From: Pseudoblastomonas marina
Lineage (GTDB): Bacteria; Pseudomonadota; Alphaproteobacteria; Sphingomonadales; Sphingomonadaceae
Assembly: GCF_014641655.1 (NCBI RefSeq)
Contig: NZ_BMID01000001.1
Span: 372,001-436,000 of the forward strand
Length of the DNA stretch: 64,000 nucleotides
Direction: 5' to 3'
A program made the translations under genes and the position numbers. This document shows, in pieces, positions 1-21,240 of this stretch. Under the pieces are notes generated by a model. The model was not told the origin of the DNA. It searched no databases and worked only from the letters and a program-made list of their open reading frames with translations. The first letter of the stretch is position 1. Every line of letters begins with the position of its first letter.

Positions 1-3000
1 AGCGCGACGGTCCGGTCGGCCCGGCGCCGCTCCATCGCCAGCTGATTGTCCGCCGACCTGATGAAGCGCGCGGCGAAGTCGCGCACGGCCTCGTTCTCGT
101 CGTCTTCCCACTCGGCGACGAGGGCCTTGCGCGCCTCCTGCGCCTCGACGGAGCCGTATTCGCCGACGAGCACGCCGCTTGAGTCGATGACGATGTCGAC
201 GATGTTCAGCAGCTCGTCGTCCGCGGGCAGGAAACCGACGATCGCGCGCAGCAGCGGATGCAGGAACTTCTCGCCCTCGTAGGCCCTCAGCACCGAGAGC
301 ACGAAGTTGATGCCCTCCCGACCCTGCTCGAGCTGGCCGTAGAGCAGCGGATAGAGCGGATGCTCCAAGTTGGGGAAGAGCTCGGCGATCAGCCGGCCGC
401 CGTGGAACTGCGAGAAGGCCGGATTGGCGTCGAACCACGCCCGCGCCGCCGCCACGATCTCGCCTGGGGCGGCCGCGAGCGGGGCGCGCAGGTCGTGGAC
501 GCCGTGCGGCAGGTCTTCGTAGCGGATGTCCCCGTTCTTGCTGTCGTGCTGGAAGCGCCGGCCGATCAGCTCGATGACTGCATGGACGTGCTCGGCCGCG
601 ATGACGGCGAGCATCGCTTCGCCGTCGCTGCCCAGGCGCGGCATATCGGTCATCAGCGCGAGCAACGGGTCGACCTGCTCGGCGGAGAGTTCCTTCAGCA
701 GCTCGACCTGGTCCCAGTTGAACATGCCGCCGGTCCAGCTGAACACGCCGCGTGACGCCAGCGACCGCGCGGCCGGCAGGTAGATCTCGTCGAACAGGCC
801 CTGCGGATGCCTCGCCGACTGCCGGGCGGCGGCGATGGCGGCGTTGTGCAGGATCGCGTCGTCCGCCGCGGCCAGCCCCTTAGCGGTGATGGTGGCCAGC
901 AGGTCGAACCGGAACGCCTCGGCGAACTGCAGGTAGTAGGCGATCGAGGACAGGTGCCGGTCCTCGCCGATCCAGCCCTCTAGCAGGCGGTCTATGTCCG
1001 GGCCGCGACCGGCTTCCCAGAGTCCGTGGAGCATGCCAGGCAGCCATGCCGCGAGGCGGTCGCTGAGCCGGGGCAACCACGACAGCAGGATGTCGGGCTG
1101 GGTCGTCGCGAGCCGCTTGATGAAATCCTGGAGTCCAATGAACGTCGCCCCATCGCTGCTGCGCGTCTCGACAAAGCGCTCGAGCCGCACGAGCCACTCG
1201 TCCGACGTGTCGGCCGTGAGGTCCGCGATCAGCGCTTCGATGCCGGCGGACTGCTCTTCCTTCCTCGCCTCGTAGTCGAAGCCCGGCTTCGCCCACATGC
1301 TCGCGGTCACGCTGTCGTAGCCGACGAGCAGCCGGTAGCGGGCCAGTTCGGGATCGGCGTCTAGCGCGGCACGGACTTCGGCGAACGCCTCGAGCAGCCG
1401 CCCCTGCGCTGCCACCAGCGCGGCGTTACCAGCCATGGCGGGCGGCAGCGCGTGGTAGGCGTAGTATCGCTGGTGGACGGCGACTTCGAGATGCCGCCTC
1501 GCCTCGAGCCCGAGGCCGGGGATCACCCCGGCGAAGAACCCCATGACCCGTGCGAGGTCGTCCATAATGACCTCGCCGAGCTGATCGGTGTAACCGGCGT
1601 TGTTCGGCGTGCTGCCCGCGGCGAGCATGGCGTGCCGCACGTTGCCCTTCGCCCCGTCGTCGGCGAGGAGCCTGTGCAGGCGCTCGAGCTGTCCCAGCGC
1701 ATCGCGGCGAATCTGCTTCAGCTCGTCGGTGACGACGACCGATCCGTTGTGAAGCAGCATCGCATCGGCCTTCCAGCTGGTGCCGGTCACTGTGGTCGAA
1801 AGGGTCTCCTTCAGCATGATGGTGGCGCTAGCGGTGGCGTCGACCAGGGAGGCATCCTCCATCCCCGCGATTCTGTCGACGATCAGCCGCTGGATTCCCG
1901 GCCCGACCCTCTTCCAGGCATGGAGGTCATACTGGGCGAACCGCCGGGCGAGATCGTCGATCGGCTTGCGCTCGTCGTCCGTGGCGGCGGCGCTTCGCAT
2001 GGCGATCACGGCGTCGAACATCCGCTCCGGCGCCGCGTAGAGCAAATAACCGCTTTCTAGGATCCGGCAGATCTTGACGATGACCGCGTGCGCCCTGGTG
2101 CCGGGATATTCGCGGTTGAAGTACTTGAGTGGCACCTCGGGCATCCCGGGCGCACGCATCGCCGCGTCGGACATCGTGTCGATGATGTCGGGCGCGGCGG
2201 CTACGTACTCATCGAAGTGGGGAAGCACGAAGTCCGAGTAGCGCTCGACCGTCTCCTCGAGGCTGTTGCGGTCGTCACAGCCGCGGATCGCCGCGAGGGC
2301 GTCGCCGTCGAACATTTCCTTGCCGTCGCGCAGTCGGGCATAGTCGCTGGCGATCTTGTCGAAGGCGTAGCCCGCCGGCTGGAGGTGTTCCTGCATTACC
2401 TTGCGCAGACGCTTACGCATCGCCTCGATCTTCGCGACCCCGAACCCCACGTCGGTCATCGGCTTGTAGATGGTGTCGTGCGCCATCTCGGCCCAAGCGT
2501 GGTCAAGGATCGTTTGGATCTGGATCTCGCAGCGCAGTCCGGCGAACCGGCGGTATTCGGGGAGCGCGCAGCGAGCCTCGCTCAGCGTCACCACCCAGTT
2601 CTCAGATATGAAGAATTCGGCGCCCTCCTCCTTGCTCTCGGGATAGTGCATCTTGGAGCGATCGTAGTCGACGTCGAAGTTGTCGCGCAGGATGCCGCTG
2701 TTCCGGAACCGCTCGACGTCGCCGTTGGTGTAGAGGATCACGCGGCAGCCCGCGACGTCTTTGGCGAGGTCGCCGATAGGCGTGTCGGCCTTCGCCCCGG
2801 CCCTGGCGAGCTTCGCCTCGAGCGACGCCGGTTCCTTCGCGCGGCCCTGGATGTTCTGCAGGCGAAGGTCGCGTCGCTCGGCGATCGCGGCCTCGAGGAT
2901 GTCCGACACCGCCTCGGCGAAGTCGGCATACAGCGCCATCCCACCGGTCTGATATTCGTCGAAGGTCATTCCGCGCTCCCGGCCCGCATCCAGATCGGCA

Positions 3001-3011
3001 AGACGAGGCAT
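1..3011 (-). CDS. Large RelA/SpoT-domain protein, 3' end cut by window edge
   Basis: An open frame of about 1000 codons runs from an ATG at 3011 to the window edge without a stop. Residues about 55-185 form a RelA/SpoT nucleotidyltransferase-like domain: DVAGCRVI near 85-92, then GLRCEIQIQT followed by DHAWAEMAHDTIYK near 158-183. These match the EIQ.RT and WA...H..Y signatures of (p)ppGpp synthetases. The segment that normally carries the GYR.xH motif reads differently here, so synthetase activity is not assured; no HD hydrolase domain precedes it. The remaining 800 or more residues are helical and I do not recognise them. An internal ATG at 2969, starting MTFDEYQ, has a better ribosome site (GGGAG) and may be the true start. 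It adjoins vsr and a methyltransferase, so a defence role is plausible but inferred. Confidence 0.75.
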   Translation of the reverse strand, partial: MPRLADLDAGRERGMTFDEYQTGGMALYADFAEAVSDILEAAIAERRDLRLQNIQGRAKEPASLEAKLARAGAKADTPIGDLAKDVAGCRVILYTNGDVERFRNSGILRDNFDVDYDRSKMHYPESKEEGAEFFISENWVVTLSEARCALPEYRRFAGLRCEIQIQTILDHAWAEMAHDTIYKPMTDVGFGVAKIEAMRKRLRKVMQEHLQPAGYAFDKIASDYARLRDGKEMFDGDALAAIRGCDDRNSLEETVERYSDFVLPHFDEYVAAAPDIIDTMSDAAMRAPGMPEVPLKYFNREYPGTRAHAVIVKICRILESGYLLYAAPERMFDAVIAMRSAAATDDERKPIDDLARRFAQYDLHAWKRVGPGIQRLIVDRIAGMEDASLVDATASATIMLKETLSTTVTGTSWKADAMLLHNGSVVVTDELKQIRRDALGQLERLHRLLADDGAKGNVRHAMLAAGSTPNNAGYTDQLGEVIMDDLARVMGFFAGVIPGLGLEARRHLEVAVHQRYYAYHALPPAMAGNAALVAAQGRLLEAFAEVRAALDADPELARYRLLVGYDSVTASMWAKPGFDYEARKEEQSAGIEALIADLTADTSDEWLVRLERFVETRSSDGATFIGLQDFIKRLATTQPDILLSWLPRLSDRLAAWLPGMLHGLWEAGRGPDIDRLLEGWIGEDRHLSSIAYYLQFAEAFRFDLLATITAKGLAAADDAILHNAAIAAARQSARHPQGLFDEIYLPAARSLASRGVFSWTGGMFNWDQVELLKELSAEQVDPLLALMTDMPRLGSDGEAMLAVIAAEHVHAVIELIGRRFQHDSKNGDIRYEDLPHGVHDLRAPLAAAPGEIVAAARAWFDANPAFSQFHGGRLIAELFPNLEHPLYPLLYGQLEQGREGINFVLSVLRAYEGEKFLHPLLRAIVGFLPADDELLNIVDIVIDSSGVLVGEYGSVEAQEARKALVAEWEDDENEAVRDFAARFIRSADNQLAMERRRADRTVA

Positions 3012-3213
3012 ATCGAAAGTCCGTTTCGCACAATATCTCGTCTAGAACCTGCCGTTCGGCAAACGGCCCATCAGCAGACCTTAACTTGCACCCAACTGGA
3101 TGGGCTATGTCGAATAACTCATCAGTTGGTTTTTGATCCTCAAACCCCGGGCAAAGGTTTCACATTCGAGAACTTCACAGCATAGTGATCAATCGCAAAA
3201 TACGTAGGGCGAT

Positions 3214-3657
3214 CTATCCCAGATCAAGATTTTCGCTGTCGCCATCTCTAAGCCACTGAACAAGCCGAGGAATGGTCTCGTCGAGACCCTCTCTCAATCT
3301 ACACTCCCAAATCGTAGCTGTCCTCCAACCCAGTTGCTGCATGGAAGATAGGCAGCGAACGTCCCGCTCCACGTTTCTCGCAAATTTTTGCTCCCATTTT
3401 TCCGCATTGGTTTTCGGGGTCGTCGCCAATTTGCAACCCTGGTGGCGGTGCCAGAAGCATCCATGTACGAATATCGCTGCGCCATATTTGGGCAGAACAA
3501 GATCCGGCTGGCAGGGCAAATCCCTTCGTCGTCGGAGGGAAAAGCGAAACCCGCTGGCATGCAAACGTTTTCTAACGAGAAGCTCGGGCTTCGTGTTGCG
3601 CGAACGAATGCCCGACATCATTCGCGAACGCTCTTCCTTTGAAACGATATCGGCCAT
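3214..3657 (-). CDS. vsr: Very short patch repair (Vsr-type) DNA mismatch endonuclease
   Basis: 147 residues, the usual length for Vsr. The N-terminus carries the family signature MSGIRSRNTKPEL. The catalytic Asp lies in PDLVLP (about D52), and the zinc-site and catalytic His/Cys cluster is FVHGCFWHRH..C at about 63-75. Vsr nicks beside T:G mismatches that arise when 5-methylcytosine deaminates, protecting genomes that carry a cytosine-5 methyltransferase. That fits the divergent C5 methyltransferase starting only 42 bp away. The gene is transcribed towards the RelA/SpoT-domain gene, from which about 200 bp of AT-richer DNA separates it. Family assignment is firm; the mismatch context is unknown. 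Confidence 0.93.
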   Translation of the reverse strand: MADIVSKEERSRMMSGIRSRNTKPELLVRKRLHASGFRFSLRRRRDLPCQPDLVLPKYGAAIFVHGCFWHRHQGCKLATTPKTNAEKWEQKFARNVERDVRCLSSMQQLGWRTATIWECRLREGLDETIPRLVQWLRDGDSENLDLG

Positions 3658-3699
3658 TTTTACCCTGGTTGTCTCGCGAAGACCTGGTATGAAACTTCC

Positions 3700-5211
3700 A
3701 TGAAATCAAATCGGGTCTTTCGCACAATCGATCTCTTTGCCGGTCCGGGCGGGCTCGCCGAAGGCTTCTCGACCTCGACCGGACCTGCCGAATTCAAGAT
3801 CGATCTTTCCGTCGAGATGGATGCCGGAGCCTTTTCCACCCTCAGACTGAGAAGCTTCTATCGGAACCTCGATCCGAGCGGCAGGCAGGACTACATCGAC
3901 TTTGCGAACGGCGAAATTCCGCTGAAGGAAATCGTTCAGCGTCACGGAGTCGCCTGGGAGCAAGCGGAAGCAGAGACCGCCATGCTCGAACTTGGCAAGC
4001 CCGACGACGATCGAAAACTCGATGTGCGTCTGGACAAGCTCCTCGAGGACGATGCCGACAACTTCGTTGTGATCGGAGGTCCTCCCTGTCAGGCCTATTC
4101 GCTTGCAGGCAGATCCCGGAACGCTGGAAATGCCGACTACACTCCCGAGAAGGACCGCCGGCACTTCCTGTTTCGGGAGTATATCCGCATTCTCGACAAG
4201 GTGCGTCCCCGCGCATTCGTGATGGAAAACGTAAAGGGGATCCTGTCCTCTTCGGTTTCCGGGGGAAGAATCTTCGAACTCATCCACCGCGATCTGGCGA
4301 ATGCCGCCGGGCCCGACAGCTACCGTCTTTTCTCGCTATCGCCCGAACCCGACAAGTCAGGCTATTTGTTGCGGGCCGAGGAGCACGGTGTGCCCCAGGC
4401 CCGGCACCGTGTCATCATTCTCGGATTGCGTCAGGATGTGGCCGCCAGTCTCGATGCGAGCGAAATTCGACTTCCGAAGGCGACACGGGAAGTGTCGGTG
4501 GAGGAAGCCATCGGCGACCTGCCGGAGCTGCGAAGTGGGCTGAGCCGGGGAGAGGACAACTTCCCATGCTGGAAAAAGGCGGTAGGCGAAGCATTTCTGG
4601 CCGCGGCAGACGCCGCGCCCGAGGGGTCGGGGCTGCGCGAACGGCTATGGCAGCATCATAAGGCTATCCAGCAAAGAATGGAGACGGGTCGAAGTTCCAC
4701 GTCCTATGGCACCACGCCCCCGTCGGAATTTGTGAAAACACTACGCGACGATCGACTGATACGCCCACCCAATCACGAGACGAGAGGTCATATGACCTCC
4801 GATCTCGCCCGATATGCCTTCTGCGCGACATTTGCCGAGCTCGAAGGACGCCCCCCTTCCTCCCGGGACTTTCCCGAGGTTCTCGCGCCGAACCATCAGA
4901 GCTGGAATTCGGGAAAATTTGCCGACCGTTTCAAGGTGCAGGTTTGGAACAGACCCTCTTCCACCGTTACAAGCCACATTTCTAAGGACGGCCACTATTT
5001 CATCCACCCCGATCCGACCCAGTGCCGTAGCCTGACCGTAAGGGAGGCCGCCCGACTTCAAAGCTTTCCCGACGACTACGTATTCCTTGGCAACCGTACT
5101 TCGCAGTACGTACAGGTTGGAAACGCGGTACCGCCCGTCCTCGCCAGGCAAATCGCGTTGGTTCTGGGCCAGCTGCTTGCGGGCGGCATCAAACAGGCAA
5201 GGGCCGCCTAG
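3700..5211 (+). CDS. DNA (cytosine-5-)-methyltransferase
   Basis: 503 residues with the ordered motifs of C5 methyltransferases: motif I DLFAGPGGLAEGF (about 11-23) for S-adenosylmethionine binding, motif IV GGPPCQ (126-131) with catalytic Cys130, motif VI MENV (about 175-178), and a C-terminal motif X-like VQVGNAVPP. It methylates cytosine at a site I cannot infer; the variable target-recognition stretch lies at roughly 270-420. It diverges from vsr across a 42-bp gap and meets the AIPR gene tail to tail, with both stop codons inside one CTAG. It is probably the modification half of the adjacent nuclease/ATPase operon. Confidence 0.95.
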   Translation: MKSNRVFRTIDLFAGPGGLAEGFSTSTGPAEFKIDLSVEMDAGAFSTLRLRSFYRNLDPSGRQDYIDFANGEIPLKEIVQRHGVAWEQAEAETAMLELGKPDDDRKLDVRLDKLLEDDADNFVVIGGPPCQAYSLAGRSRNAGNADYTPEKDRRHFLFREYIRILDKVRPRAFVMENVKGILSSSVSGGRIFELIHRDLANAAGPDSYRLFSLSPEPDKSGYLLRAEEHGVPQARHRVIILGLRQDVAASLDASEIRLPKATREVSVEEAIGDLPELRSGLSRGEDNFPCWKKAVGEAFLAAADAAPEGSGLRERLWQHHKAIQQRMETGRSSTSYGTTPPSEFVKTLRDDRLIRPPNHETRGHMTSDLARYAFCATFAELEGRPPSSRDFPEVLAPNHQSWNSGKFADRFKVQVWNRPSSTVTSHISKDGHYFIHPDPTQCRSLTVREAARLQSFPDDYVFLGNRTSQYVQVGNAVPPVLARQIALVLGQLLAGGIKQARAA

Positions 5212-7286
5212 CCCATAGATTCGACTGGCGCCCCTTCATCCGCGAGCCGATTGATCAGAAGCTTCATGGCATTTCTTTCGGGCCGCGAAAGCGCGATATT
5301 CCCGGCCGAAAGCTTCTCCAGGGCCCGGTTGGACTTGTCGGAAAGCAGGCGCTTCTGGTTGGCGTTGGCACGAACCAGATCCGCTTTTGGAACGATCGAT
5401 AGCAGAACGACATCGAGATCAATTTCGTTGTCGATCTTTTTCGTGTCGCGCCCGGCCTTCTTCAGATCCTTTGCATCATCTTCGCTGAGTGTGACGTAGT
5501 CGGGAAGGGCGGGAACACTGAAATCCATCTTCGAGATATTTTCCCAGCAGGCCTGCATCTTGCAGTATTCGCCAACGTTGCGAGCTTCGGCCGGTGCGTC
5601 CTTGATCGCCGCGGCAATTTGAGGCGCAAGCACCTCGAGAAACTCCTGAAGCTCTTCCGGGACATCCTGTGTCGACCAGACAGTGTCCCAATTGATCGAC
5701 GCGCGTCCTAACTCACGCACATGAAGAGAAGCTCGGGCAAGCGTGTAGGTCACTGTCTGCGACTTGAAGCCACGATCTTCCTGGTACCATTCCGACTGCG
5801 CGATCATCTTGTCAGTCCACCTGAACAGCAGTGCCATTGAGCACGCGTTCCTGAACCAGGTCTCGTTGAAGTTTGCCTGCCCGGCTTTCCACGCTTTCGC
5901 CGTCTCGTTAGCGAAGTGCATGAAGCATTTCTGGGCGCCCTTCGACACGATGTCGGGCCGCCTTTCAAAAGTAGTCACATATTTCGCGAGATCGGTTTTC
6001 ACCATGACCTTGGCCTTGGGAAATTCAAGCTGATACTTCCGCCGTTCCGCCTTGCTCGCGTAGGCCATGCCGTCGCGATACTGGCCACGTGCACGCTCGT
6101 AAAACCACTTCTCGCCCGCTAGCGCACCGTCCTGCGGCGGCGCGGTCAGGACCCTAGAGTACCGTTCCATCTGCAGGTGGAAGGGATGGTTGGAGAAGAA
6201 ATCGGCTTCCGAGATCCGGTTCTGCGTATTCGCGTAGCGGGAAATCAGCGGCACCACCTTCTCGACCGATTCATCCGGTACGACCGAAAGCTTCATCTGG
6301 ACGTGGACTTTGTCGAGCGAGGCCTTCCCCACGTCCTTGGCATAGAGAATCGAGGCCGTTGTCTGCCCCCCGTTTACGATCTGGAGATCGTGTATCGAGG
6401 AAATGCCGAGCTGACCGTCTTCCAGTTGCCTGAGTTCCACACCTGATGCCGTCGCGGTCAGGCCATTATTGTAGGCGAAGAACATCTCGGGTTCTTCCCG
6501 AATCGTTTTGAGAATGCCCTTGTTCACTTTGGTTCTGGCCTGAAGGTAGGTCCGGACATTCTGCTCGAGTAGTCTCGCACCGTAGAGACCGTAGACGTCG
6601 GCGAGAACCTCGCCGGGCAACGCCAAAAGATAGGATTCGTATTCGCCGGACATCTTTGAAGCCCGCAGGCACGGGAGGGCGCCGCCGGCAATTCCTTCCA
6701 GATCGACCTCGATGGCTTCGGGTGTCGCCCGCGACTTTTGAATGTCGGCATATCTCGCAACATCGAGAACGGTGTAGACAACGGGCACTCCGGCAACATC
6801 CGCCATCAGCTGTGGGGGCCTGCGCGCAGCAAGTCTGGCGTTGGAAAACAGGATAACGCGAAGCCTGCGGATCGACTGCTGGTTCATGTAGATCGGATAG
6901 GCCGCCGCGAAGCACTGGCTGCTGTCCTCCAACGAGTTTATGAACTCGGGCGCGAGAGCGTTCTCGAAGAAATTGGTTGCCTGCTTGAGAGCGGAATCCA
7001 TCCTCGCGGCCTGAAGCGACTGAAGCTCGCGCCCCTCCCGAAAGTCGCAGATGGCCAAGTAGAGCGTGCCTCGATCTGCGTCGAAAGCATGACCGTCCAC
7101 CCGATACGGCCTTGAACCTCCTTCCTTGCGGCAGTGGGCATATTCGAGATCGATCGTGTCACCATTGTCGCTCGCGGCCTCGGCGAAAATCTCGAAGAAG
7201 GCCTCTTCCTGAAAGACTCCGCCGGCCTCCGCCTCGAGCATCACGTCTTCGCGAAGGTCCTCGAAAGCATCTTCCAGATCATCCAT
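5208..7286 (-). CDS. AIPR-family (abortive infection phage resistance) protein
   Basis: 692 residues. The AIPR core is clear at about 242-320: NVRTYLQ, then NKGILKTI, FFAYNNGLTATA and IHDLQIVNGGQTTASI. AIPR proteins recur in phage-defence and restriction loci; their biochemical activity is not well defined. The N-terminus (about 50-85) has a VDGHAFD...LYLAICDF segment that looks like the nuclease-like fold often found before AIPR, but the usual catalytic Q/E-x-K is not evident, so it may be degenerate. It is the last gene of a four-gene operon, overlapping its upstream partner by 8 bp. Its stop overlaps that of the convergent methyltransferase. Confidence 0.9.
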   Translation of the reverse strand: MDDLEDAFEDLREDVMLEAEAGGVFQEEAFFEIFAEAASDNGDTIDLEYAHCRKEGGSRPYRVDGHAFDADRGTLYLAICDFREGRELQSLQAARMDSALKQATNFFENALAPEFINSLEDSSQCFAAAYPIYMNQQSIRRLRVILFSNARLAARRPPQLMADVAGVPVVYTVLDVARYADIQKSRATPEAIEVDLEGIAGGALPCLRASKMSGEYESYLLALPGEVLADVYGLYGARLLEQNVRTYLQARTKVNKGILKTIREEPEMFFAYNNGLTATASGVELRQLEDGQLGISSIHDLQIVNGGQTTASILYAKDVGKASLDKVHVQMKLSVVPDESVEKVVPLISRYANTQNRISEADFFSNHPFHLQMERYSRVLTAPPQDGALAGEKWFYERARGQYRDGMAYASKAERRKYQLEFPKAKVMVKTDLAKYVTTFERRPDIVSKGAQKCFMHFANETAKAWKAGQANFNETWFRNACSMALLFRWTDKMIAQSEWYQEDRGFKSQTVTYTLARASLHVRELGRASINWDTVWSTQDVPEELQEFLEVLAPQIAAAIKDAPAEARNVGEYCKMQACWENISKMDFSVPALPDYVTLSEDDAKDLKKAGRDTKKIDNEIDLDVVLLSIVPKADLVRANANQKRLLSDKSNRALEKLSAGNIALSRPERNAMKLLINRLADEGAPVESMG

Positions 7287-8265
7287 CGATCAGCTCCTCG
7301 AAGGTGGCTTCGATATCCCTCGCATAGGGCTGACAATCGGAGGCGCGAATCCTGTATCGCACCTGCTCCACCCCTGGTCTGAGCTCCCCTCTCTCGATTC
7401 TCGGGAAATCGTCGCGAACTTCGTAGAGAGCCCTGTCGACCCGCGTCCACGTCTCCTCCTCGTATTCGGGGTGCGGCTCGTATCCCGCTCCCAAATATCC
7501 TATACCGAGGAGATCGGAAGCGCCCCCTCCGGTTGCCTTTGCCAAGTCGGCGAGTTCCTTTGCGATCGAATTCAAGGTGCAGGATCCGGCCGCCCCTTCC
7601 GGAGCAGGAGCAATGCCCTGATTGCAGATCAGTATCCTGCCCTGACGAGGATCGAGCTGATCTTCCGACGAAACGGAAATCATCCGATCGGCCGTCACGA
7701 CCTGCGTCTTCACCTCGAAGATCGTCGAACCCACCACGAAATCCTGTTCATGCCTCTCGTGCCCGGTCCAAGCATGCAGACCGGCAATTAGCCCCATGCG
7801 GGGCAGGAGCTCGTCCCGCAGGAACAAAAGTTCGCCGACAAGCCCGATTCGCTCGCTTCTGGTGAGCCGCCGATCTTGGCGGCGCTTCAGCATCTCGTGC
7901 CAGCGGTGAAGTTCTTCCAAGGTGCGGACGAAGCCTTCGGAGGACCTCGTCGCTGCGTTTGACCGCGTCGCGAGCATCAGACCAGCGCACATATGTGAGA
8001 AGATCTGGAGGTCAGCCTTGTCCTGAAGGCCGAGAACGAGTCGAACACGGCCGGCCTTGGGCTCCTCCAGCTCGATCGAAATCCCCATGACCTTGGGTAG
8101 TTTCGGAATTCCACCAGCCGGCCGGTCCGCGTCGAGCAGAAACACGTATTGTCCGCGACTATCCTGTCCGATCCGGAAGTCCAGAGGATGGCCGCTGTCG
8201 GCGAGCAGCACGTTTCGTGCACCCGATTCCGCCGGCGGCGAGAGAGATTCCCATGCCTCAAGCAT
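7279..8265 (-). CDS. PD-(D/E)XK motif protein (DUF4420-like), putative restriction nuclease
   Basis: Start chosen at the ATG at 8265 (MLEAWESLS), with GGGAG upstream and an 8-bp overlap with the Z1 gene; this gives 328 residues. A likely catalytic PD-(D/E)XK core is visible: a helix GLVGELLFL with Glu at about 145, then QDFVVGSTIFEVKTQ with Asp175, Glu184 and Lys186. Families of this type sit in operons with Z1 helicase-like and GHKL ATPases and a cytosine methyltransferase, where they are the expected DNA-cutting subunit. It overlaps the genes on both sides, implying translational coupling. The nuclease role is inferred from the motif and the setting. Confidence 0.87.
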   Translation of the reverse strand: MLEAWESLSPPAESGARNVLLADSGHPLDFRIGQDSRGQYVFLLDADRPAGGIPKLPKVMGISIELEEPKAGRVRLVLGLQDKADLQIFSHMCAGLMLATRSNAATRSSEGFVRTLEELHRWHEMLKRRQDRRLTRSERIGLVGELLFLRDELLPRMGLIAGLHAWTGHERHEQDFVVGSTIFEVKTQVVTADRMISVSSEDQLDPRQGRILICNQGIAPAPEGAAGSCTLNSIAKELADLAKATGGGASDLLGIGYLGAGYEPHPEYEEETWTRVDRALYEVRDDFPRIERGELRPGVEQVRYRIRASDCQPYARDIEATFEELIDG

Positions 8266-10957
8266 CCTGGTCTCCCGTGATCGCCTCGGCGTCGTCGTCG
8301 TCTTCCTGCTCGTACTGAAGTTCAAGCTGGGTCCGGTAGACCGCATTGACCTGGTAGGTGTGTTCCTTTGCCGGCCTTTTGGTCTCGGGAATGCAGAAGG
8401 AAAGCGTCACCGCCGGACTCCCGATCTTCAGAACATCGTCCGACTGTTCCTTGTGGTCCGGATCGTCGCGCAATGTCGGCTCGAATACGTGAACCAGCAT
8501 CATCGGCCGTTTTCGGACGCTACAGGCGGCACGTTCCTTCTTGTATTCGTCGTTCTCGAACCGCTGAAGTGCGTTCCTTTCCTGCTCCTCGTCGAGACCG
8601 ATCCATGCATCCGGCAGATCAGCCACCCGGCTCCTCGCGCCATAGACCCTGTATGCGCCATCCTTCACGATGCCTTTATCGCGACTTCTCATGCGTACGT
8701 CCTGTCCGGCGAAGCTCTTCGCGGCACCTGCCTGCTTCATCGGTATCGCAACGTCCCACTCGGACATTTCGTCGGAGATGCGATCCTGGACATAGTCCTC
8801 GAAAAGCGAGGATTCCGAGATCTTCGCAAGATCAAGATGGGGTCCGAAGTTGAACCTAGCGATCAACTCCAGCACGTCCCTGCCTCTTGCCCGCCAAGCA
8901 ACGTAGCCCGGCGCAACTTCCAACGGCTCGCCCAGCCGTTCCAAGAACTCCGTAACCGCGGCGTAATTCTCGTCGCCCTTTCTCGCGTCATTTGGAAGCG
9001 CGTGGCCCTCGACATGACGGGCGGAATAGTCCTGCGCGACGGTCAGCTTCTCTGCGGTCCGCATCTTGTTCGCTGCGGTCACGCGGATCGCCAGAGGGCT
9101 CTGGCGAACCTTCAGGCCGAAGTCGGCCGGCGTGCGGTTCGCGGCCTTCATGCGCTTCACTTCCTTGCGCAGTTCCTCGGTCGCCTCGTCGACGTACTCG
9201 TAGTGATTGAGCGACATTTGGGGAAGGTAGAGCCGGCAAATGTCCTCGTATCCCGGACGGTACCCGAACCAGCGCGCCATCTGCATCAGAGTGTCGCTCG
9301 CTGCCACGTTTCTGAGCAGATATGAAACGGTTAGCCCTTCAAGGGTCAAGCCGCGCGAAAGCGCGAGGCCACCGATGGCGATAACGTGAAGCCCGTGCAG
9401 CCTGTTGAGGCTGTAGTCGAGCACACCGCCCTTCATGTTGACCGTACGGACCTCGATGCTCTGAATGCCCTCGTTGAGGCAGGAAAGCACGTCGGACCAT
9501 TCGTAGTCGAGATCCGAATATTCCTCGTCGAAGCTGACCTTGAGATCGTCCATCGTATCGTCATGGATCCTCTCCGGATCGAGCGAACCATAGACGGAGA
9601 CGGCATCCTTGAGCTCGGAAAGGTATTCATGAACGTGTCCGAGGATCTGCGCCTGAATGGCATTGAAGCGGCTCACGTTTATCATCATCGAGCAGTGCGC
9701 ATCCCCCTTTTCCTGCAACACACGGATCGCACGCGTCAGGCAGAAAACCCTGACAGCGTGCTTCAGGCTTTCCGGAAGATCGGTGACCAGATCGCCACTT
9801 TTGTGCTTGAGCGGCAAGAGCGCCTGATAGTCGGCAACGGTCCTGACCATCTCGTCGCGAAGATCGCCGTCATCTCGAAAAACGCGGTGCGAGCCCACGT
9901 AGTTTGAAGGCGGATCGAGAGCCTTGATGAAATTGCCGGGAAACAGGTCGTCGTGCTCCATTTCCTCCGGCGATTCAGGATCGATGAAGATGTTCGCGAA
10001 TGGTGTTGCCGTGTATCCCACATAGGCGGACCGCGGAAAACGGGCGAGGATTTGCCGGATAATGCCGTTGATGGCCGTCGTAAGCTTGGGATCCTTTGCG
10101 GTGTTGATCGAGGCGTTGTCGGCTTCGTCGTCGATCAGGAGCAGGGGCAGCTCGAACCCTCCGGTTTCCTCCTGCTCGTCAATCCACTTCTCGAGCCTTT
10201 CTAGAACCGCCTTGTTCTTTTTCGTCACGAAGATCATCGGCTCTTGGTGACCGGCCAGACCGAAATAGATCCCGTCCATTCCGGCCTTGAAATCCGAGTC
10301 CCTGGTTGTGCCGACCGCGGGTATCCTTCTTTCGGTCGCGAATCTCTGGATCGGCAGCGACTGCTGTGCGGCCGCATTCGCGACCGATATCTTGCCTATG
10401 AACGTTTCGTCGAGACGCTCCTGCGTCTGGGTGCGAAGTGAATTCGTGATGCCGGCAAGGAGTATGATCACACGGTAGCCGGCATCCGCCGCCTTGCAGA
10501 TGAGAGCCGAGTAGTTGGTCGTCTTGCCCATCTGCACGTTGCCCATGACCATGCCGCGGACCGCCTGGTACGACGGATCGAGCGGGTTACCGCACAGGTC
10601 GAGGATTTCGTCGGTGTCGGTATCTAGCGTCGCGACGACGTTCGACGGCAGAACTCCGGTTTCGCGGTAGTACTTGCTGAGCCTGTTCCAGTAGTAGAAA
10701 CTTAGGCTGGCCTTTTTCTTCGACAGCCATGGCCGGTGTCCCTTCGAGATGACCGCGCCGCGCCTCTGGGTGACCCTGAAGCTCGCCTCGAGCTCCCGAA
10801 CGATGGAGTGAACCGACTCCTCGTCGAGATGGGTAAAGGGTCCGTCCTCCACCATCTGCTCGATTGCACCTTCGGGCAGACCGGCTCCTGTGGCGAAAAG
10901 CTCGGCATATTCCCGCTCTATGTTCAGCCGGAAAAAGGCAAGTTCCGCATCATGCAT
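8258..10957 (-). CDS. Z1-domain (endonuclease-associated) helicase-like ATPase
   Basis: 899 residues. Walker A is GNVQMGKT (139-146), Walker B is LLLIDDEADN (about 272-281), and the SF2-like motif III is YVGYTATPF (about 312-320). The Z1 signature follows later: SRGLTLEGLTVSYLLR, then QMARWFGYRPGYEDICRLYLP. Z1 proteins are ATP-dependent, helicase-like subunits of restriction-type loci and probably translocate on or sense DNA for the nuclease partner. It is the second gene of the operon, overlapping the GHKL ATPase gene by 8 bp upstream and the PD-(D/E)XK gene downstream. GGGTGG precedes the ATG. Confidence 0.93.
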   Translation of the reverse strand: MHDAELAFFRLNIEREYAELFATGAGLPEGAIEQMVEDGPFTHLDEESVHSIVRELEASFRVTQRRGAVISKGHRPWLSKKKASLSFYYWNRLSKYYRETGVLPSNVVATLDTDTDEILDLCGNPLDPSYQAVRGMVMGNVQMGKTTNYSALICKAADAGYRVIILLAGITNSLRTQTQERLDETFIGKISVANAAAQQSLPIQRFATERRIPAVGTTRDSDFKAGMDGIYFGLAGHQEPMIFVTKKNKAVLERLEKWIDEQEETGGFELPLLLIDDEADNASINTAKDPKLTTAINGIIRQILARFPRSAYVGYTATPFANIFIDPESPEEMEHDDLFPGNFIKALDPPSNYVGSHRVFRDDGDLRDEMVRTVADYQALLPLKHKSGDLVTDLPESLKHAVRVFCLTRAIRVLQEKGDAHCSMMINVSRFNAIQAQILGHVHEYLSELKDAVSVYGSLDPERIHDDTMDDLKVSFDEEYSDLDYEWSDVLSCLNEGIQSIEVRTVNMKGGVLDYSLNRLHGLHVIAIGGLALSRGLTLEGLTVSYLLRNVAASDTLMQMARWFGYRPGYEDICRLYLPQMSLNHYEYVDEATEELRKEVKRMKAANRTPADFGLKVRQSPLAIRVTAANKMRTAEKLTVAQDYSARHVEGHALPNDARKGDENYAAVTEFLERLGEPLEVAPGYVAWRARGRDVLELIARFNFGPHLDLAKISESSLFEDYVQDRISDEMSEWDVAIPMKQAGAAKSFAGQDVRMRSRDKGIVKDGAYRVYGARSRVADLPDAWIGLDEEQERNALQRFENDEYKKERAACSVRKRPMMLVHVFEPTLRDDPDHKEQSDDVLKIGSPAVTLSFCIPETKRPAKEHTYQVNAVYRTQLELQYEQEDDDDAEAITGDQDA

Positions 10958-12428
10958 TCTTCCACCCCTTTAATCGCAAATGTTCCTCGACCAGCGTCGA
11001 CTGGCCGCCCCACGGCTCCGTCACCTGGAGCAGCTCCCAGAGTTTCTCGAACGAGCCATCGCAATGGGCGAGGAGAGACGGCAGCGCCGCGTCGAGCCGC
11101 TCCAGAAACGCATCCCGGTCGAGAGCGCTCTGGTTCATCATCTCGGGTCTGGTCGTGAAATCCTCGCCGATGCTGACGGCCGGAAAGCAGTCCTCGACGA
11201 GATTGAGCGCAACGCCAAAGGACTGGCGCACTTCACGATCTTCGTGCTCAAGCAGGTCGGCAACGAGCGGATGCTCACGGTTTACATAGTACCGCACTTC
11301 GCCGCTCCGGACGTATTTTGCCCAGACGGGCGTCTTGCCGTCCGTTTGCTTGATCCTGCCTCCGCGGGACTGGAATACCTTTCCCGACTGCCCCTTGAGC
11401 GACTTCACGATCTCTCTCAGTCTCGACCTTAGTCCGGAGGGGAGCTGGGCCTCCGACTTGTCGACGGTGATCTTCCAGATCGCGTCGAGGCTGTTCGGGA
11501 TGTTCACCGCAATTCTGACCAGCTGCGAGAGCTCGCCGTGTCGAACCAGCCGGAACCACGTCCCGTGCATAATTAGCCTATGCTGACGGTAGACGTAGAA
11601 GCCCTGATTTTTGACGAAGCCCTCCTCGCCGCCCAGCCTCTCATGTTCCGCCGAGGAAATTTTCGAGAAGTGAGGAAGGATGAACGCCTGAACGCTGAAT
11701 GGCTTTCCTTCGAGCTCCAGATGTTCGACGGGCTTGGATTGTGTCGCCGGGTGATCACGCAGAAATGGGTCGATCGGATCTAGGGCGCCCTCGTTGAAGG
11801 TGATCGTCAGCTTCTTTCTGACGCCCATCTCGCCCGCAAGATAACGGTGGAATGTGAGCGCCAGCTCGGACTTTGCGTGTGCCAGAAGCTCGTTGAATTC
11901 CTTGGCCCTGACCTTTCCGTACTCAGATAGACGGTCGCAATTTTCCCAGATTATTTCGGTCCCGTCTCGCTCGAGCAGCTTGGGATTTGCGAGCTTCTCG
12001 ATCTCTTGGTGCTCGAGGATGCCCATCTGCCAGTCTTCGATATCGTCGAGGTCCCAGCTGGCTCCGGCATACTTCCCGTTCTTTCGTGTCAGAACGGTGA
12101 GCTTTCTGCATTGTGAGAGCGACGCCGACTTCATCCCCCAGCCGAAGCGCCCCAGGTCGTCCGCGGCCCGCTCGTCTTCGGGGTTTGCGCTCGCCGGCCG
12201 CATGGCACCGAAGAGTTCGTCTTCGGTCATGCCGTGGCCGTCGTCGAGAATTCGAACCGTCGGCTCTCCGTCTTCTCTCAGGCACAGGATCTCGATCATG
12301 CCCGCCCGGGCCTTGATGCTGTTGTCCAGCAGGTCCGCCAATGCGCTCGGCAGATTGTAATTGCCGAAGCTACGAGCCGAAGCCATCAGCGCGGCAGCGT
12401 CCGGCGGATTGTTCCTGTACTTGACCAC
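10950..12428 (-). CDS. GHKL (MutL/MORC-like) ATPase, first gene of defence operon
   Basis: 492 residues from a GTG at 12428. The Bergerat ATP-binding fold is complete: N-box ALADLLDNSIKA (Asn36), G1 box DDGHGM (62-67), G2 box GRFGWGMKSAS (93-103). The C-terminal half is not recognised. Bacterial MutL/MORC-like GHKL ATPases are known to travel with Z1, PD-(D/E)XK and AIPR genes in restriction-modification-like loci and are thought to form ATP-gated DNA clamps. It leads the operon GHKL-Z1-nuclease-AIPR. A 14-bp perfect palindrome lies 41 bp upstream of the start. Confidence 0.92.
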   Translation of the reverse strand: MVKYRNNPPDAAALMASARSFGNYNLPSALADLLDNSIKARAGMIEILCLREDGEPTVRILDDGHGMTEDELFGAMRPASANPEDERAADDLGRFGWGMKSASLSQCRKLTVLTRKNGKYAGASWDLDDIEDWQMGILEHQEIEKLANPKLLERDGTEIIWENCDRLSEYGKVRAKEFNELLAHAKSELALTFHRYLAGEMGVRKKLTITFNEGALDPIDPFLRDHPATQSKPVEHLELEGKPFSVQAFILPHFSKISSAEHERLGGEEGFVKNQGFYVYRQHRLIMHGTWFRLVRHGELSQLVRIAVNIPNSLDAIWKITVDKSEAQLPSGLRSRLREIVKSLKGQSGKVFQSRGGRIKQTDGKTPVWAKYVRSGEVRYYVNREHPLVADLLEHEDREVRQSFGVALNLVEDCFPAVSIGEDFTTRPEMMNQSALDRDAFLERLDAALPSLLAHCDGSFEKLWELLQVTEPWGGQSTLVEEHLRLKGWKNA

Positions 12429-12677: not shown

Positions 12678-13949
12678 TCAGCCGGTCGGTCTTCGATCAA
12701 AATCGTGGCGATATATAGGGGGCGCATCTCGCCCTTGGACAGCCCTGAAAACGAAGTCGTGGTCATCGTCGGAGCCAAAAAGCTTGCTGCGATCAAACCT
12801 TCGCTCGAGATTTTCCGCGGTGATTGCGCTTTCAAGGTCTGCCAGACGACGACTAACCCAGCGGTCGAACTCCACCACTCTCGGGTGGGCATGCTCCCCA
12901 TCGGGCTCACAGAATTTCGGAAGCAATTCCTTCAGTTTTTCGATCTCTTCGAGTTCTCGCAGAATACTCGTCAAGGCGGCGCCGCGACGCTGCTCGATAT
13001 ATTCCGTTCGCTGAGCGATTTCCCGCTGCCTTCGCGCTTCTTCGGCGGCCTTTTCCCGATTTTCCCGCTGCAGTCTCTGCTGTCGCTTGGCTGCGGCTAT
13101 AACCGCAACACCAATCGCAACTTCCGTGGCGATGACCTCGAGCCTCTGGACCTTGGCATCGTTGAAGGTTCGCCTCGGAGATGGCTCGCCTGCTACCCAT
13201 ACGTGATCCAGTTCCAGGCTGAGCTTTCCGGTCGGCCGCCAGTCCCATTCCGGCGTTACGGGTCGTTTCGACCAGTCAATGTCGAACCACCCATTTCTCC
13301 GCCTCTCCAGCATCCGGTCCCACTTCGCCTCCGCAGCCAGCTCGCTCGCCGTCGGCTGGTGTTTCAGGCGCTGAAAGGTTTCGGACAGGGAAAAGCCCAC
13401 ATCGTCCATTCCGTTGGTGAAGCGGGCCGGCCCCTTATCGGGCGAGACCAGATTAAAGTCCTGTATACACGCGGCACTCGTTACCTGCCCGAGGATTCTG
13501 CCAAGGCGATCGATCGACGCTGGAGCAATTTCGCAGCGAATGAGGCCGTCGCGAGCGCAGGTGACCAGCCCCATGTGAGAGGCGTGCGATCGCCTCAGAA
13601 CGGCCAGCGTGGCCGAGACGATTTCGCATTCGTCTGGCGAATGCCCTCCTTGATCGCCCGCTGCGCGGTCGCGTGCCTTGGCGCGCTCGCCAGCGAGTAC
13701 GCCTGGTTGGCGTGCGGCAATCAGAACCTTTCCATCATCGTCGGGCGGGGCCGCTCGAAGCGGCGTAACCGATACCTTCTTCCCTGCTTTCTGCTTTGCC
13801 CACCAGCCCGCCGGGGGTGTGGGGATCGCGTGCTTGCGACAGCTCTTGTGCAGAGCGACATCGGATAGCCCGAACTCCTTCGCCAGCTGTGTCATTGGTC
13901 GTGACCAGACGAGTGCATGGAACTCCTCACGGGTAAACGCCTTGGTCAT
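12678..13949 (-). CDS. Hypothetical protein with N-terminal helix-turn-helix-like segment
   Basis: 423 residues from the ATG at 13949 (MTKAFTREEF), preceded by AGGA; an in-frame ATG 18 bp further out has no ribosome site. Residues about 5-45 (REEFHALVWSRPMTQLAKEFG, then LSDVALHKSCRKHAIPTPPAGWW) look like a resolvase/terminase-type helix-turn-helix that reads phage or plasmid DNA. A charged helical, probably coiled-coil stretch with many Arg/Glu follows at about 275-370. I do not recognise the family with certainty. It lies upstream of and co-directional with the defence operon, but 249 bp separate them, so it is probably a separate unit. Confidence 0.75.
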   Translation of the reverse strand: MTKAFTREEFHALVWSRPMTQLAKEFGLSDVALHKSCRKHAIPTPPAGWWAKQKAGKKVSVTPLRAAPPDDDGKVLIAARQPGVLAGERAKARDRAAGDQGGHSPDECEIVSATLAVLRRSHASHMGLVTCARDGLIRCEIAPASIDRLGRILGQVTSAACIQDFNLVSPDKGPARFTNGMDDVGFSLSETFQRLKHQPTASELAAEAKWDRMLERRRNGWFDIDWSKRPVTPEWDWRPTGKLSLELDHVWVAGEPSPRRTFNDAKVQRLEVIATEVAIGVAVIAAAKRQQRLQRENREKAAEEARRQREIAQRTEYIEQRRGAALTSILRELEEIEKLKELLPKFCEPDGEHAHPRVVEFDRWVSRRLADLESAITAENLERRFDRSKLFGSDDDHDFVFRAVQGRDAPPIYRHDFDRRPTG

Positions 13950-14219
13950 GCTCGGAATCCTGCCCATTTGCTGGTTGCGCCATCGTGACGAGTCGCAACT
14001 CGCTTTGCGACGCCTCGGTCATGATAGCGCAGCAGCCACGCGAACGGGGCTCGATTGATCGCCCGGGCCCCGGACTCGTTTCAATGCATATATGCGCTGC
14101 ATTGGCATTCCGCTTAGATTTGATATCGAAAAATCAGATATACACGTTGAAATGCCGATCAAACGCTAATTGCGCCTATCAAATATGAGTCATAATCTCC
14201 GCCTCACTGGAGAAAAGAC

Positions 14220-15835: not shown

Positions 15836-16522
15836 ATGCAATTCCTGACGCGCCTGTTTGTCGATCATAGTTTCGATGAATGGGCATCAGACCAGACGCT
15901 TCTCGCTGCTCGCGTATTAAACCAAGCCGCAGCAGATCTCATCCTGCAGACTGAAGAAGATCTCACCAAGGCAGGATGGAAGGACGGACTTGTCGACCCG
16001 AACGCCTTCCTCAGGGAAAAGATCGCACCGCGTATCAGGGCAGTTGGCGAACCACTGGCGCTCATGCTGATCGAGGATGCGAACGAGGCACTCCAATCGC
16101 TGGCAAACGAGCGGGCTCTCTGGAGTCGAAACATCGAAGATGCCCCAGTGCATGGCAACTCCTTTGAGGGGGCGGGCGATATCGCAGCGACGGCAATACC
16201 CCTTGGGGCTGGCGCTGCGGCGGCTGCCGCACTGCCCTATTTGGCAATCTCTTCTACGAGCGCTTACTTCGGATTTGTCACTACCACTGCCATAAGCTGG
16301 CCGATCGTGGTGGGCGGAGGAGCTATCGCAGCGCTCGGAATTGCCACTGGCATCATCGAGGGTAGCCGCCTCTGGTCGAAGCTCGAAGCTCGCTTGCGAC
16401 GCAAGTCGCGGGAATTGATCATCTCAGCTTTGCTGCGAGGCACCGCGCAGCGCCCCTCGATCCTTGAACAGCTGGAATCTGAATATAGGCAGACCGCTGA
16501 ACGAGCTCGATCCATCGCATGA
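15836..16522 (+). CDS. Hypothetical membrane protein, first of a two-gene cassette
   Basis: 228 residues. The N-terminal half is helical and soluble. Two hydrophobic, Ala/Gly-rich segments sit at about 118-145 and 150-175 (ATAIPLGAGAAAAAALPYLA and ISWPIVVGGGAIAALGIATG), and a basic, helical C-terminus follows. I do not recognise the family. The stop overlaps the ATG of the next gene in ATGA, so the two proteins are probably made together. Base composition is less GC-rich than in the core genes of the window. The hydrophobic hairpin suggests insertion into, or conditional binding to, the inner membrane. Confidence 0.7.
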   Translation: MQFLTRLFVDHSFDEWASDQTLLAARVLNQAAADLILQTEEDLTKAGWKDGLVDPNAFLREKIAPRIRAVGEPLALMLIEDANEALQSLANERALWSRNIEDAPVHGNSFEGAGDIAATAIPLGAGAAAAAALPYLAISSTSAYFGFVTTTAISWPIVVGGGAIAALGIATGIIEGSRLWSKLEARLRRKSRELIISALLRGTAQRPSILEQLESEYRQTAERARSIA

Positions 16523-20579: not shown

Positions 20580-21172
20580 GACCTCACTCCTTGCTGTTCA
20601 GCCAATTGCGCTTCGAAGGCAGCCAGTATGGCGAGATCAGCGGAGGAGAGGCTCTCGTCGGTCGTCAATTCCTCGTCAGGTCCGGCGACATCGGGAACCG
20701 CGACCCGCCATAGCTTCATCAACTCGAACTGTGCGCGGGCATCGCCCTTCAGGGCCTTTTCCAGCGTCTTCTGCAGGACCGCCTCGATCTTGCTAATCTT
20801 CCTGGTTCCCTCGGAAGTCCGGACAGCCAGCTTTCCGCCAAGTGTCTCACGCACGATGGTGTTGAGACCCTTTGCCCCCTTGGGCCGGCCCCTTGGATTT
20901 CCGGACTGGCCCGGCTTGAAGCGGGTCGTCACAGGCGGTTTCCCGTAGCCGACTTCGTAGACCGGACCTGGTGAACCCGCTCTAAGTTCTTCTTCAGCAT
21001 CGATTGGGCTCAGCTTTGTAGGTTCGGGGTCGTTGGTGTCCGGAAGCAGGTCGGACGTATCTATCGGCGGCACTGTACGAGTGCGTTTTCTCGCTGGTGG
21101 CAATCGGCGAGGCTGGTCCTCGTCCTCCTCGGGGAAGGCGCTGATCCAGTCGGGAGCAGGTTTGAACGGCAT
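20576..21172 (-). CDS. DUF5681-domain protein, probable small-terminase-like
   Basis: 198 residues from the ATG at 21172 (MPFKPAPDWI), with GGAG upstream; a TTG at 21244 would overlap the previous gene. The DUF5681 signature TRFKPGQSGNPRGRPKGAKG lies at about 85-105, followed by a helical region (TIVRETLGGKLAVR..., about 107-170). DUF5681 proteins are usually encoded directly before a large terminase and probably bind DNA for packaging. Here the stop overlaps the terL start. The first 70 residues are low-complexity and charged. Confidence 0.85.
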   Translation of the reverse strand: MPFKPAPDWISAFPEEDEDQPRRLPPARKRTRTVPPIDTSDLLPDTNDPEPTKLSPIDAEEELRAGSPGPVYEVGYGKPPVTTRFKPGQSGNPRGRPKGAKGLNTIVRETLGGKLAVRTSEGTRKISKIEAVLQKTLEKALKGDARAQFELMKLWRVAVPDVAGPDEELTTDESLSSADLAILAAFEAQLAEQQGVRS

Positions 21173-21240
21173 GGCTCGTCTCCGGAAAACATGGGATGGC
21201 GCGCCGGCCAATTGGTCGGGCCGGCGCGCGAAGAAACTGA

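What the first reader, a model, noticed from the sequence alone, without database searches (positions are those of the whole stretch)
3214..12428. GHKL-Z1-PD(D/E)XK-AIPR operon facing a C5 methyltransferase and Vsr: a MORC-type restriction/defence module
Four minus-strand genes overlap by 8 bp at each junction. They encode an intact GHKL ATPase (N, G1, G2 boxes), a Z1 ATPase (Walker A/B), a PD-(D/E)XK protein with D175/E184/K186, and an AIPR protein. A C5 methyltransferase converges on them (shared CTAG stop) and a Vsr gene stands back to back with it. Related sets are known from comparative genomics of MutL/MORC-like ATPases in restriction systems, but as far as I know the mechanism of this set has not been worked out. 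The ATP-clamp plus helicase-like plus nuclease design suggests more than simple cutting.
Basis: partly seen in the sequence, partly recalled or inferred. Interest (0 to 1): 0.75.

Follow-up and report, generated by a model that had tools for sequence, protein, structure and literature searches.

The report
MZA-like restriction system with exchangeable methyltransferase
This is a new member of a known but mechanistically unsolved kind of bacterial anti-phage gene set, and its relatives suggest that a swappable DNA methyltransferase with a repair nuclease marks the host's own DNA so that a four-protein machine attacks only foreign DNA.

Summary
Observation confirmed: vsr, a convergent C5 methyltransferase (MTase) and an overlapping GHKL-Z1-DUF4420-AIPR operon lie at 3214-12428. 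Not new in kind: Iyer 2008 listed such operons, Miller 2022 described an MTase-bearing set like this one, and the core is homologous to the phage-tested mzaABCDE system (though below all four NCBIfam cut-offs and without the sigma factor MzaA).

What I add: (1) 70 of 73 well-flanked GZDA loci have a C5 MTase within 5 kb, including loci of the sigma-bearing MZA clade; the three exceptions are all E. coli mza loci, and 5307 of 5426 E. coli genomes carry dcm-vsr elsewhere. (2) MTase and Vsr are exchanged against a nearly constant core; Vsr tracks the MTase's recognition domain, the core proteins hardly or not. Some cassettes are Dcm-like. (3) AIPR is predicted to be a degenerate PD-(D/E)XK domain plus a ParB-like domain that holds most of the conservation.

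Best reading: an ATP-driven restriction system restrained by 5-methylcytosine, whose core does not itself read the MTase's site. A shared fixed site is not excluded. Key prediction: mzaABCDE should harm dcm-negative E. coli.

The parts
3214..3657 (-). vsr: very-short-patch mismatch nicking endonuclease
   Evidence: Pfam Vsr 89 bits; NCBIfam vsr 127 bits, above cut-off 97.85; aligns to E. coli Vsr 1cw0 over residues 2-143
3658..3699 (.). 42-bp divergent intergenic region between vsr and the MTase
   Evidence: coordinates; sequence read
3700..5211 (+). C5 cytosine methyltransferase, 503 aa; region between motifs VIII and IX (taken as TRD) 245-413
   Evidence: Pfam DNA_methylase 161.5 bits; best PADLOC model DrmMII 316 bits; G15, C130, Q233, R235 in 104 of 104 rows; TRD bounds
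5208..7286 (-). AIPR protein (MzaE homologue): PD-(D/E)XK-like domain about 1-190, ParB-like domain about 208-364, mostly helical remainder
   Evidence: MzaE 345.5 bits, cut-off 1050; model; fold comparison; conservation
7279..8265 (-). DUF4420, putative PD-(D/E)XK nuclease (MzaD homologue), 328 aa from the later start (open frame to 8346)
   Evidence: MzaD 87.9 bits, cut-off 420; D, E, K 108 of 108; model and fold comparison
8258..10957 (-). Z1-domain ATPase (MzaC homologue), 899 aa
   Evidence: MzaC 501.9 bits, cut-off 1500; Walker A and B invariant
10950..12428 (-). GHKL/MORC-type ATPase (MzaB homologue), 492 aa, GTG start
   Evidence: MzaB 274.8 bits, cut-off 850; ATP-binding boxes and MORC motif conserved

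Best explanation
An ATP-driven restriction system of the MZA-like, methyltransferase-linked kind. Steps are inferred unless marked. (1) The C5 MTase methylates the host's sites; Vsr nicks T:G mismatches left by deaminated 5mC (family knowledge). (2) The MORC-type GHKL protein closes as an ATP-gated clamp on DNA and loads or holds the complex (inferred from its class). (3) The Z1 ATPase moves along DNA and is licensed by DNA lacking 5mC, as CglI's Z1 ATPase works only with its nuclease on unmethylated sites and DISARM's DrmAB is slowed by 5mC (shown for those systems, not here). (4) DUF4420 cuts with its PD-(D/E)XK site (residues conserved here; cutting not shown). (5) AIPR, a degenerate nuclease domain plus a ParB-like domain (predicted here), serves as nucleotide-gated sensor or assembly factor. 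The core does not itself read the sequence that the MTase reads; it responds to 5mC or to the MTase. That is why the MTase-Vsr cassette can be exchanged, or in E. coli be supplied from elsewhere (Dcm-Vsr).
For: Near-obligate MTase: 70 of 73 GZDA loci with at least 5 kb on both sides have one within 5 kb; the 3 others are E. coli. 106 MTases in 977 kb near the core, 2 in 416 kb further out. Vsr in 60 of the 73, never without an MTase. Exchange: L034/L035 core identity 0.89, MTase catalytic part 0.39, TRD 0.32, Vsr 0.43; likewise L046/L137, L047/L058, L087/L101, window/L054. Over 84 loci TRD distance, given core distance, follows Vsr (partial r 0.36, 0 of 300 permutations) but not G (-0.09), Z (0.04), D (0.06). 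Dcm-like MTases: L087 46 of 82 and L153 45 of 84 identical to E. coli Dcm in residues 301-405; L153 lies next to an EcoRII-C nuclease. AIPR folds. Precedents: CglI, DISARM, unlinked MTase/Vsr dependence in Caulobacter.
Against: No phenotype was tested. 62 of 104 TRDs join one cluster at 40% identity, so many exchanged MTases may share a target. AIPR shows a weak tie to the TRD (0.12, 4 of 300). TRD and catalytic part move together (r 0.90), so the test is of whole MTases. The test for local troughs in the core lacks power: Vsr itself reached only 41 of 500 there, and Z1 42 of 500. dcm is nearly universal in E. coli (5307 of 5426), so co-occurrence with mza says little; I saw dcm in two mza-positive chromosomes only. 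L153's MTase may serve the EcoRII neighbour alone. ParB-like matches have Z near 6 and Foldseek E above 0.001.
Confidence: 0.48

Rival explanations
1. Classical restriction-modification: the core recognises one fixed site and every linked MTase is isospecific, so swapping is harmless; the shared site might be that of Dcm (CCWGG), which would also explain why E. coli needs no linked MTase.
For: 62 of 104 TRDs connect at 40% identity; Dcm-like MTases stand beside cores of different clades (L087, L153, L060, L138); CglI, the biochemically known Z1 system, is site-specific.
Against: 58 TRD clusters at 50% identity among 104; L087 and its sisters L091, L099, L101 align at 0.12-0.13 over 69 TRD positions; the window MTase matches Dcm at 27 of 103 positions of that region.
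Confidence: 0.25
2. The MTase is the specificity subunit of the restriction complex (as in type I, type III or, by recall, BREX): the core binds whichever MTase is present and attacks sites that it finds unmethylated.
For: Exchange of the MTase with little change in the core; near-obligate linkage.
Against: E. coli mza loci have no linked MTase, so a resident enzyme of another lineage would have to dock; no core region clearly co-varies with the MTase.
Confidence: 0.15
3. The MTase-Vsr pair is an independent neighbour of the core in defence islands, and the core tells phage from self by other means.
For: E. coli mza, which protects against phage (recalled; called validated), lacks the pair; in L153 and L152 the MTase lies beside another nuclease gene.
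Against: 70 of 73 linkage and about 22-fold enrichment near the core; MTase and AIPR share their stop in the window.
Confidence: 0.08
4. Abortive infection: phage sensing triggers cell death or shutdown, with AIPR as effector and the MTase acting like an antitoxin.
For: AIPR's family name; in the draft locus L026 AIPR is in pieces, GHKL is not found and the MTase is reduced to 192 aa, as if lost together.
Against: AIPR's nuclease-like domain has no conserved ExK: its only columns at 90% or more are F30, F106, D175, R178; the conserved nuclease residues are in DUF4420.
Confidence: 0.1

Closest known systems
MzaABCDE (MZA) anti-phage system, as annotated in E. coli
   Same: Homologous GHKL, Z1, PD-(D/E)XK and AIPR proteins in the same order; loci close to it, L134 and L143, also carry MTase and Vsr.
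   Different: No MzaA sigma factor beside the window core; all four proteins below NCBIfam cut-offs (275/850, 502/1500, 88/420, 345/1050 bits); the window has linked MTase and Vsr, the E. coli loci do not.
Putative defence system 'type II' of Miller, Stern and Burstein 2022 (PMC9523054, section 11 read in full)
   Same: Z1, PD-(D/E)XK (printed DUF4220) and cytosine MTase as core; AIPR in type II; MORC associated; 'reminiscent of mzaABCDE'.
   Different: That text ties repair endonucleases to type I and a putative regulator to type II; the window has Vsr and no conserved regulator. Sequences were not compared.
Third-type MORC operons of Iyer, Abhiman and Aravind 2008 (PMC2292703, parts 1-3 of 4 read)
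   Same: MORC with the distinct SF-II helicase, RE-fold protein, DNA methylases, Vsr; AIPR named in the figure legend; the MORC motif.
   Different: A comparative proposal (DNA looping); cassette exchange, the E. coli exception and AIPR's fold are not in the parts read.
CglI / NgoAVII (PMC4267653 passages; PMC5737866 abstract and conclusion)
   Same: MTase (C5 by recall) plus a Z1-bearing ATPase that needs its nuclease and unmethylated sites to hydrolyse ATP; translocation proposed.
   Different: Nuclease is PLD-B3; no GHKL, no AIPR.
DISARM (PMC9142583 passages)
   Same: Linked C5 MTase (the window MTase's best PADLOC model is DrmMII); ATPase slowed by 5mC, sequence-independent as its authors propose.
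   Different: No DrmA, DrmB or DrmC model among the matches shown for the ten proteins scanned.

Membership tests
MZA (mzaABCDE) | MzaB, C, D, E homologues in that order | tested here: met
MZA (mzaABCDE) | each protein above its NCBIfam equivalog cut-off | tested here: not met
   all four below
MZA (mzaABCDE) | adjacent sigma-70 type MzaA | tested here: not met
   an MzaA-like model built from four seeds finds 14 of 139 loci, 12 of them in the 13-row clade of E. coli, and nothing in the window's first 24 kb
Miller 2022 type II system | Z1, DUF4420, C5 MTase and AIPR, with MORC | tested here: met
Miller 2022 type II system | associated putative transcriptional regulator | tested here: inconclusive
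   gene 12678-13967 upstream has no Pfam, PADLOC, NCBIfam or PHROG match and was found in 3 of 116 loci
prokaryotic MORC (Iyer 2008) | GHKL boxes and the motif GhXhhpXXRhl | tested here: met
   residues 276-286 read; that this lies in an S5 domain was not tested
PD-(D/E)XK nuclease (DUF4420) | conserved D and ExK residues | tested here: met
   D202, E211, K213 in 108 of 108
PD-(D/E)XK nuclease (DUF4420) | the fold | tested here: inconclusive
   second look: PvuII Z 7.4 (rmsd 3.8, 116 residues), DpnI 7.3, HincII 5.7 over 160-355; Z under 8, and Foldseek had nothing under E 0.001
ParB/SspE-type fold (AIPR 208-364) | ParB N-domain fold | tested here: inconclusive
   ParB, PadC, KorB, BrxU, SspE at Z 4.1-6.1 over the same stretch; Foldseek E above 0.001
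active PD-(D/E)XK nuclease (AIPR 1-190) | intact D and ExK residues | tested here: not met
   fold-like matches (AF1548 8.7, FokI 8.3), but none of the four columns conserved at 90% is part of an ExK
CglI/NgoAVII | PLD-B3 restriction subunit | tested here: not met
   no such domain in the ten proteins
DISARM | DrmA, DrmB, DrmC | tested here: not met
   ten proteins scanned (for the MTase the best 25 of 55 matches are shown)
Restriction-modification system | unmodified DNA is cut, modified DNA spared | not testable with these tools
   needs bench work

The most novel reading that the evidence does not exclude
MZA-like systems are restriction machines with a sequence-blind core and a plug-in self-mark: any C5 methyltransferase-Vsr cassette, linked or resident, protects the host, and the core attacks DNA that lacks 5mC. 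E. coli MZA has no cassette of its own and lives off the 'orphan' Dcm-Vsr, which gives Dcm a hidden role as antidote.
Probability: 0.27. Interest if true: 0.8.

Novelty: new member of a known kind. Interest (0 to 1): 0.5.

Why it matters
If the reading holds, an anti-phage system of unknown mechanism becomes a methylation-governed one, the activity of mzaABCDE in E. coli without a linked methyltransferase is explained, and the long-puzzling Dcm-Vsr pair gets a testable role: loss of dcm should hurt only cells that carry mza. It would also be a system whose self-mark can be exchanged by swapping two genes, and it gives a fold-level idea of what AIPR proteins are.

Tried and rejected
Gene 12678-13967 as a fifth operon gene: no family match, found in 3 of 116 loci: rejected. 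A core region that carries specificity: partial correlations and windows gave at most AIPR as a whole (4 of 300) and Z1 near 661 (42 of 500); not convincing, and one search had little power (Vsr, which does track the TRD, 41 of 500). Target of the window MTase from solved MTases: 43 matches, mostly over catalytic motifs, no TRD lead. Solved relatives by sequence: none for AIPR (profile, E 1), Z1 (profile, E 0.01), GHKL (single sequence, E 0.01). Island borders: flank 1-3200 matched none of 5 relatives, the other flank scattered places. Dcm by distribution: 0 of 185 genomes of a class over the Dcm cut-off (49 with any match), so that sample could not answer; the E. coli counts are saturated. 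Seven unannotated phage records with a Z1 relative were not followed. Gao 2020 is not held and is cited from recall; the source strain of the tested mza was not checked. PMC8011034 (passages) reports C5 MTases and Vsr near other paraMORC-linked genes; not pursued.

ORFs run mechanically from the first start codon. The Z1 tree is a quick one with several long branches. Dropped before counts: L042 (same place as L143), L149, L151; L048 has no Z1; L096, L144, L130 as identical copies; these three plus L147 and L150. In one search only MTases over 380 aa, over 300 aa, AIPR over 500 aa were used. The three E. coli loci are one lineage; L147 and L148 have mzaB interrupted by an IS, L150 does not.

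Claims of addition (MTase in the sigma-bearing clade, E. coli exception, cassette exchange, AIPR fold) rest on not having met them in the paper searches, whose listings were capped.

Full report
WHAT IS THERE. At 3214-12428 lie vsr (minus), a C5 cytosine methyltransferase (plus) and four minus-strand genes, AIPR, DUF4420, Z1 and GHKL, each confirmed by Pfam. The three operon junctions are 8-bp ATGNNTGA overlaps, and MTase and AIPR share CTAG. The genes are poorer in G+C (0.53-0.60) than the window (0.64), as expected of an acquired island.

HOW COMMON. DUF4420 was found in 15 of 385 genomes of the class and in 27 of 398 of the phylum, 24 over the cut-off. Of 116 loci including the window, Z1 was found in 115, DUF4420 in 112, C5 MTase in 106, GHKL in 105, AIPR in 102, Vsr in 85. 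All four core genes stand in the window's arrangement in 95 of 115. With gammaproteobacterial, plasmid and E. coli loci added, 139 loci with Z1 were tabulated.

WHAT IT IS CALLED. NCBIfam and PADLOC name the core proteins MzaB, C, D and E, but all four score below the NCBIfam cut-offs, and no MzaA sigma factor was found in the window's first 24 kb. In the Z1 tree (quick method) the window sits among 12 alphaproteobacterial rows, apart from the 13-row clade that holds E. coli mza and 12 of the 14 loci with an MzaA-like match. Miller et al. 2022 (PMC9523054, section 11) describe a putative system with Z1, PD-(D/E)XK and cytosine MTase as core and, in type II, AIPR, with MORC, at about 20% identity to mzaBCDE; that the MTase is a core part of such sets is therefore their finding. 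Iyer et al. 2008 (PMC2292703, parts 1-3 of 4) list the same parts including Vsr and proposed DNA looping. So the locus is a new member of a described kind. Its GHKL protein meets Iyer's MORC motif at 276-286.

THE METHYLTRANSFERASE IS NEAR-OBLIGATE, EXCEPT IN E. COLI. Among GZDA loci with at least 5 kb on both sides, 70 of 73 have a C5 MTase within 5 kb and 60 of 73 a Vsr, never Vsr without MTase; the three without are the E. coli loci L147, L148, L150 (annotation). Of all 110 GZDA loci, 104 have an MTase; the other three lacking it, L043, L092 and L128, have a cut flank. There are 106 MTases in 977 kb within 5 kb of the core and 2 in 416 kb beyond. In the 13-row clade, 9 of the 10 loci that are not E. 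coli have a linked C5 MTase; the tenth, L043, has a cut flank. L134, whose MzaC scores 1325 of 1500 bits, has an MzaA-like sigma factor (586 bits, cut-off 800), MzaBCDE homologues, MTase and Vsr together.

THE CASSETTE IS EXCHANGED. In the 70 loci the nearest MTase lies upstream on the core's strand in 32, downstream on the other strand in 18, downstream on the same strand in 12, upstream on the other in 8. Close cores carry unlike MTases: L034/L035 core identity 0.89, catalytic part 0.39, TRD 0.32, Vsr 0.43; L046/L137 core 0.77, TRD 0.36; L047/L058 0.76 and 0.38, while L047/L056 (0.74) keep theirs (0.86); window/L054 0.75 and 0.33; L087/L101 0.75 and 0.12. Over 84 loci, TRD distance, given core distance, follows Vsr distance (r 0.36, 0 of 300 permutations) but not GHKL (-0.09), Z1 (0.04) or DUF4420 (0.06); AIPR shows a weak tie (0.12, 4 of 300). 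Seven swapped against twelve retained pairs show no local trough below 5% in any core protein (permutations reaching the maximum: G 433, Z 42, D 464, A 320 of 500), but Vsr, as a control, reached only 41 of 500, so this second test is weak. Against a strong conclusion: 62 of 104 TRDs join at 40% identity, though they fall into 58 clusters at 50%, so part of the exchanged enzymes may share a target.

THE E. COLI EXCEPTION. mzaC occurs in 55 of 5426 E. coli genomes; dcm-vsr over at least 80% of its length in 5307 of 5426. In the two mza-positive chromosomes that I looked at, dcm and vsr are annotated: G1/2, about 64 kb from mza (its mzaB is interrupted), and Res13-Lact-PEA12-26, about 69 kb away. 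Elsewhere Dcm-like enzymes stand beside MZA-like cores: L087 (Pusillimonas), downstream on the core's strand, 46 of 82 identical to E. coli Dcm in residues 301-405; L153 (Neorhizobium petrolearium, sigma-bearing), 45 of 84, next to an EcoRII-C nuclease. This suggests, without proving, that resident Dcm can stand in for a linked MTase. That these enzymes methylate CCWGG is inferred from the likeness.

FOLDS. The DUF4420 model (pLDDT 92) matches PvuII (Z 7.4), DpnI (7.3) and HincII (5.7) over 160-355 in the second-look alignment, while Foldseek alone gave nothing under E 0.001. AIPR (pLDDT 88, pTM 0.58) matches PD-(D/E)XK nucleases over about 1-190 (AF1548 8.7, FokI 8.3, AspBHI 7.7) and ParB-type domains over about 208-364 (6.1, 6.0, 5.9; BrxU and SspE 4.1-4.5); Foldseek again nothing under 0.001. 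Columns conserved at 90% or more: 4 of 186 in the first domain, 38 of 156 in the second, 24 of 221 and 1 of 98 in the rest; none of the four is part of an ExK. I take AIPR as a non-cutting partner with a possible nucleotide-binding centre. A search for AIPR with ParB, DUF262 or SspE listed 8 of 17 papers; none of those listed holds AIPR together with ParB.

MECHANISM. The nearest biochemistry is CglI/NgoAVII, where the Z1 ATPase hydrolyses ATP only with its nuclease on unmethylated sites and is thought to translocate (PMC4267653 passages; PMC5737866 abstract and conclusion), and DISARM, whose DrmAB ATPase is slowed by 5mC and, its authors propose, reads no sequence (PMC9142583 passages). With these, the most economical reading is a methylation-restrained, ATP-driven restriction machine with an exchangeable mark.

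Noticed in passing
window 16519-17523 (+), with 15836-16522 (+) directly before it: The second gene matches JukB (Juk system) over residues 6-148 (48.5 bits); the first has no match. Perhaps a second defence system in the island.
   Followed up: no
window 19119-22902 (-): Terminase large subunit, DUF5681 protein and a ParB_N plus N6/N4-methyltransferase fusion in a row: probably a phage-derived remnant beside the defence genes.
   Followed up: partly
L055 and L144: A Gemmobacter megaterium contig and a Shinella sp. plasmid carry the whole set with rounded identities of 1.00 for GHKL, Z1, DUF4420, AIPR, MTase and 0.99 for Vsr: probably a recent transfer.
   Followed up: no
L147 9662-10774 and L148 9664-10776: IS421 interrupts mzaB at about the same place in two E. 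coli loci whose mzaC genes are about 94% identical: a preferred site, exchange of the broken gene, or selection against mzaB.
   Followed up: no
L149: E. coli ES5 carries two mza copies in tandem with an integrase fragment between them.
   Followed up: no
L026: Apparently decaying relative: AIPR in three pieces, GHKL not found, MTase of 192 aa, Vsr present; draft contig, so assembly error is possible.
   Followed up: no
L152 15646-16815: A gene with the AspBHI N-terminal domain and Mrr_cat lies between mzaE and a C5 MTase in Thalassospira marina; by recall AspBHI cuts modified DNA, so the pairing is odd.
   Followed up: no
L145: A Z1 protein without DUF4420, GHKL or AIPR matches nearby, beside an annotated HaeIII-family nuclease and C5 MTase, on a Helicobacter plasmid.
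   Followed up: no
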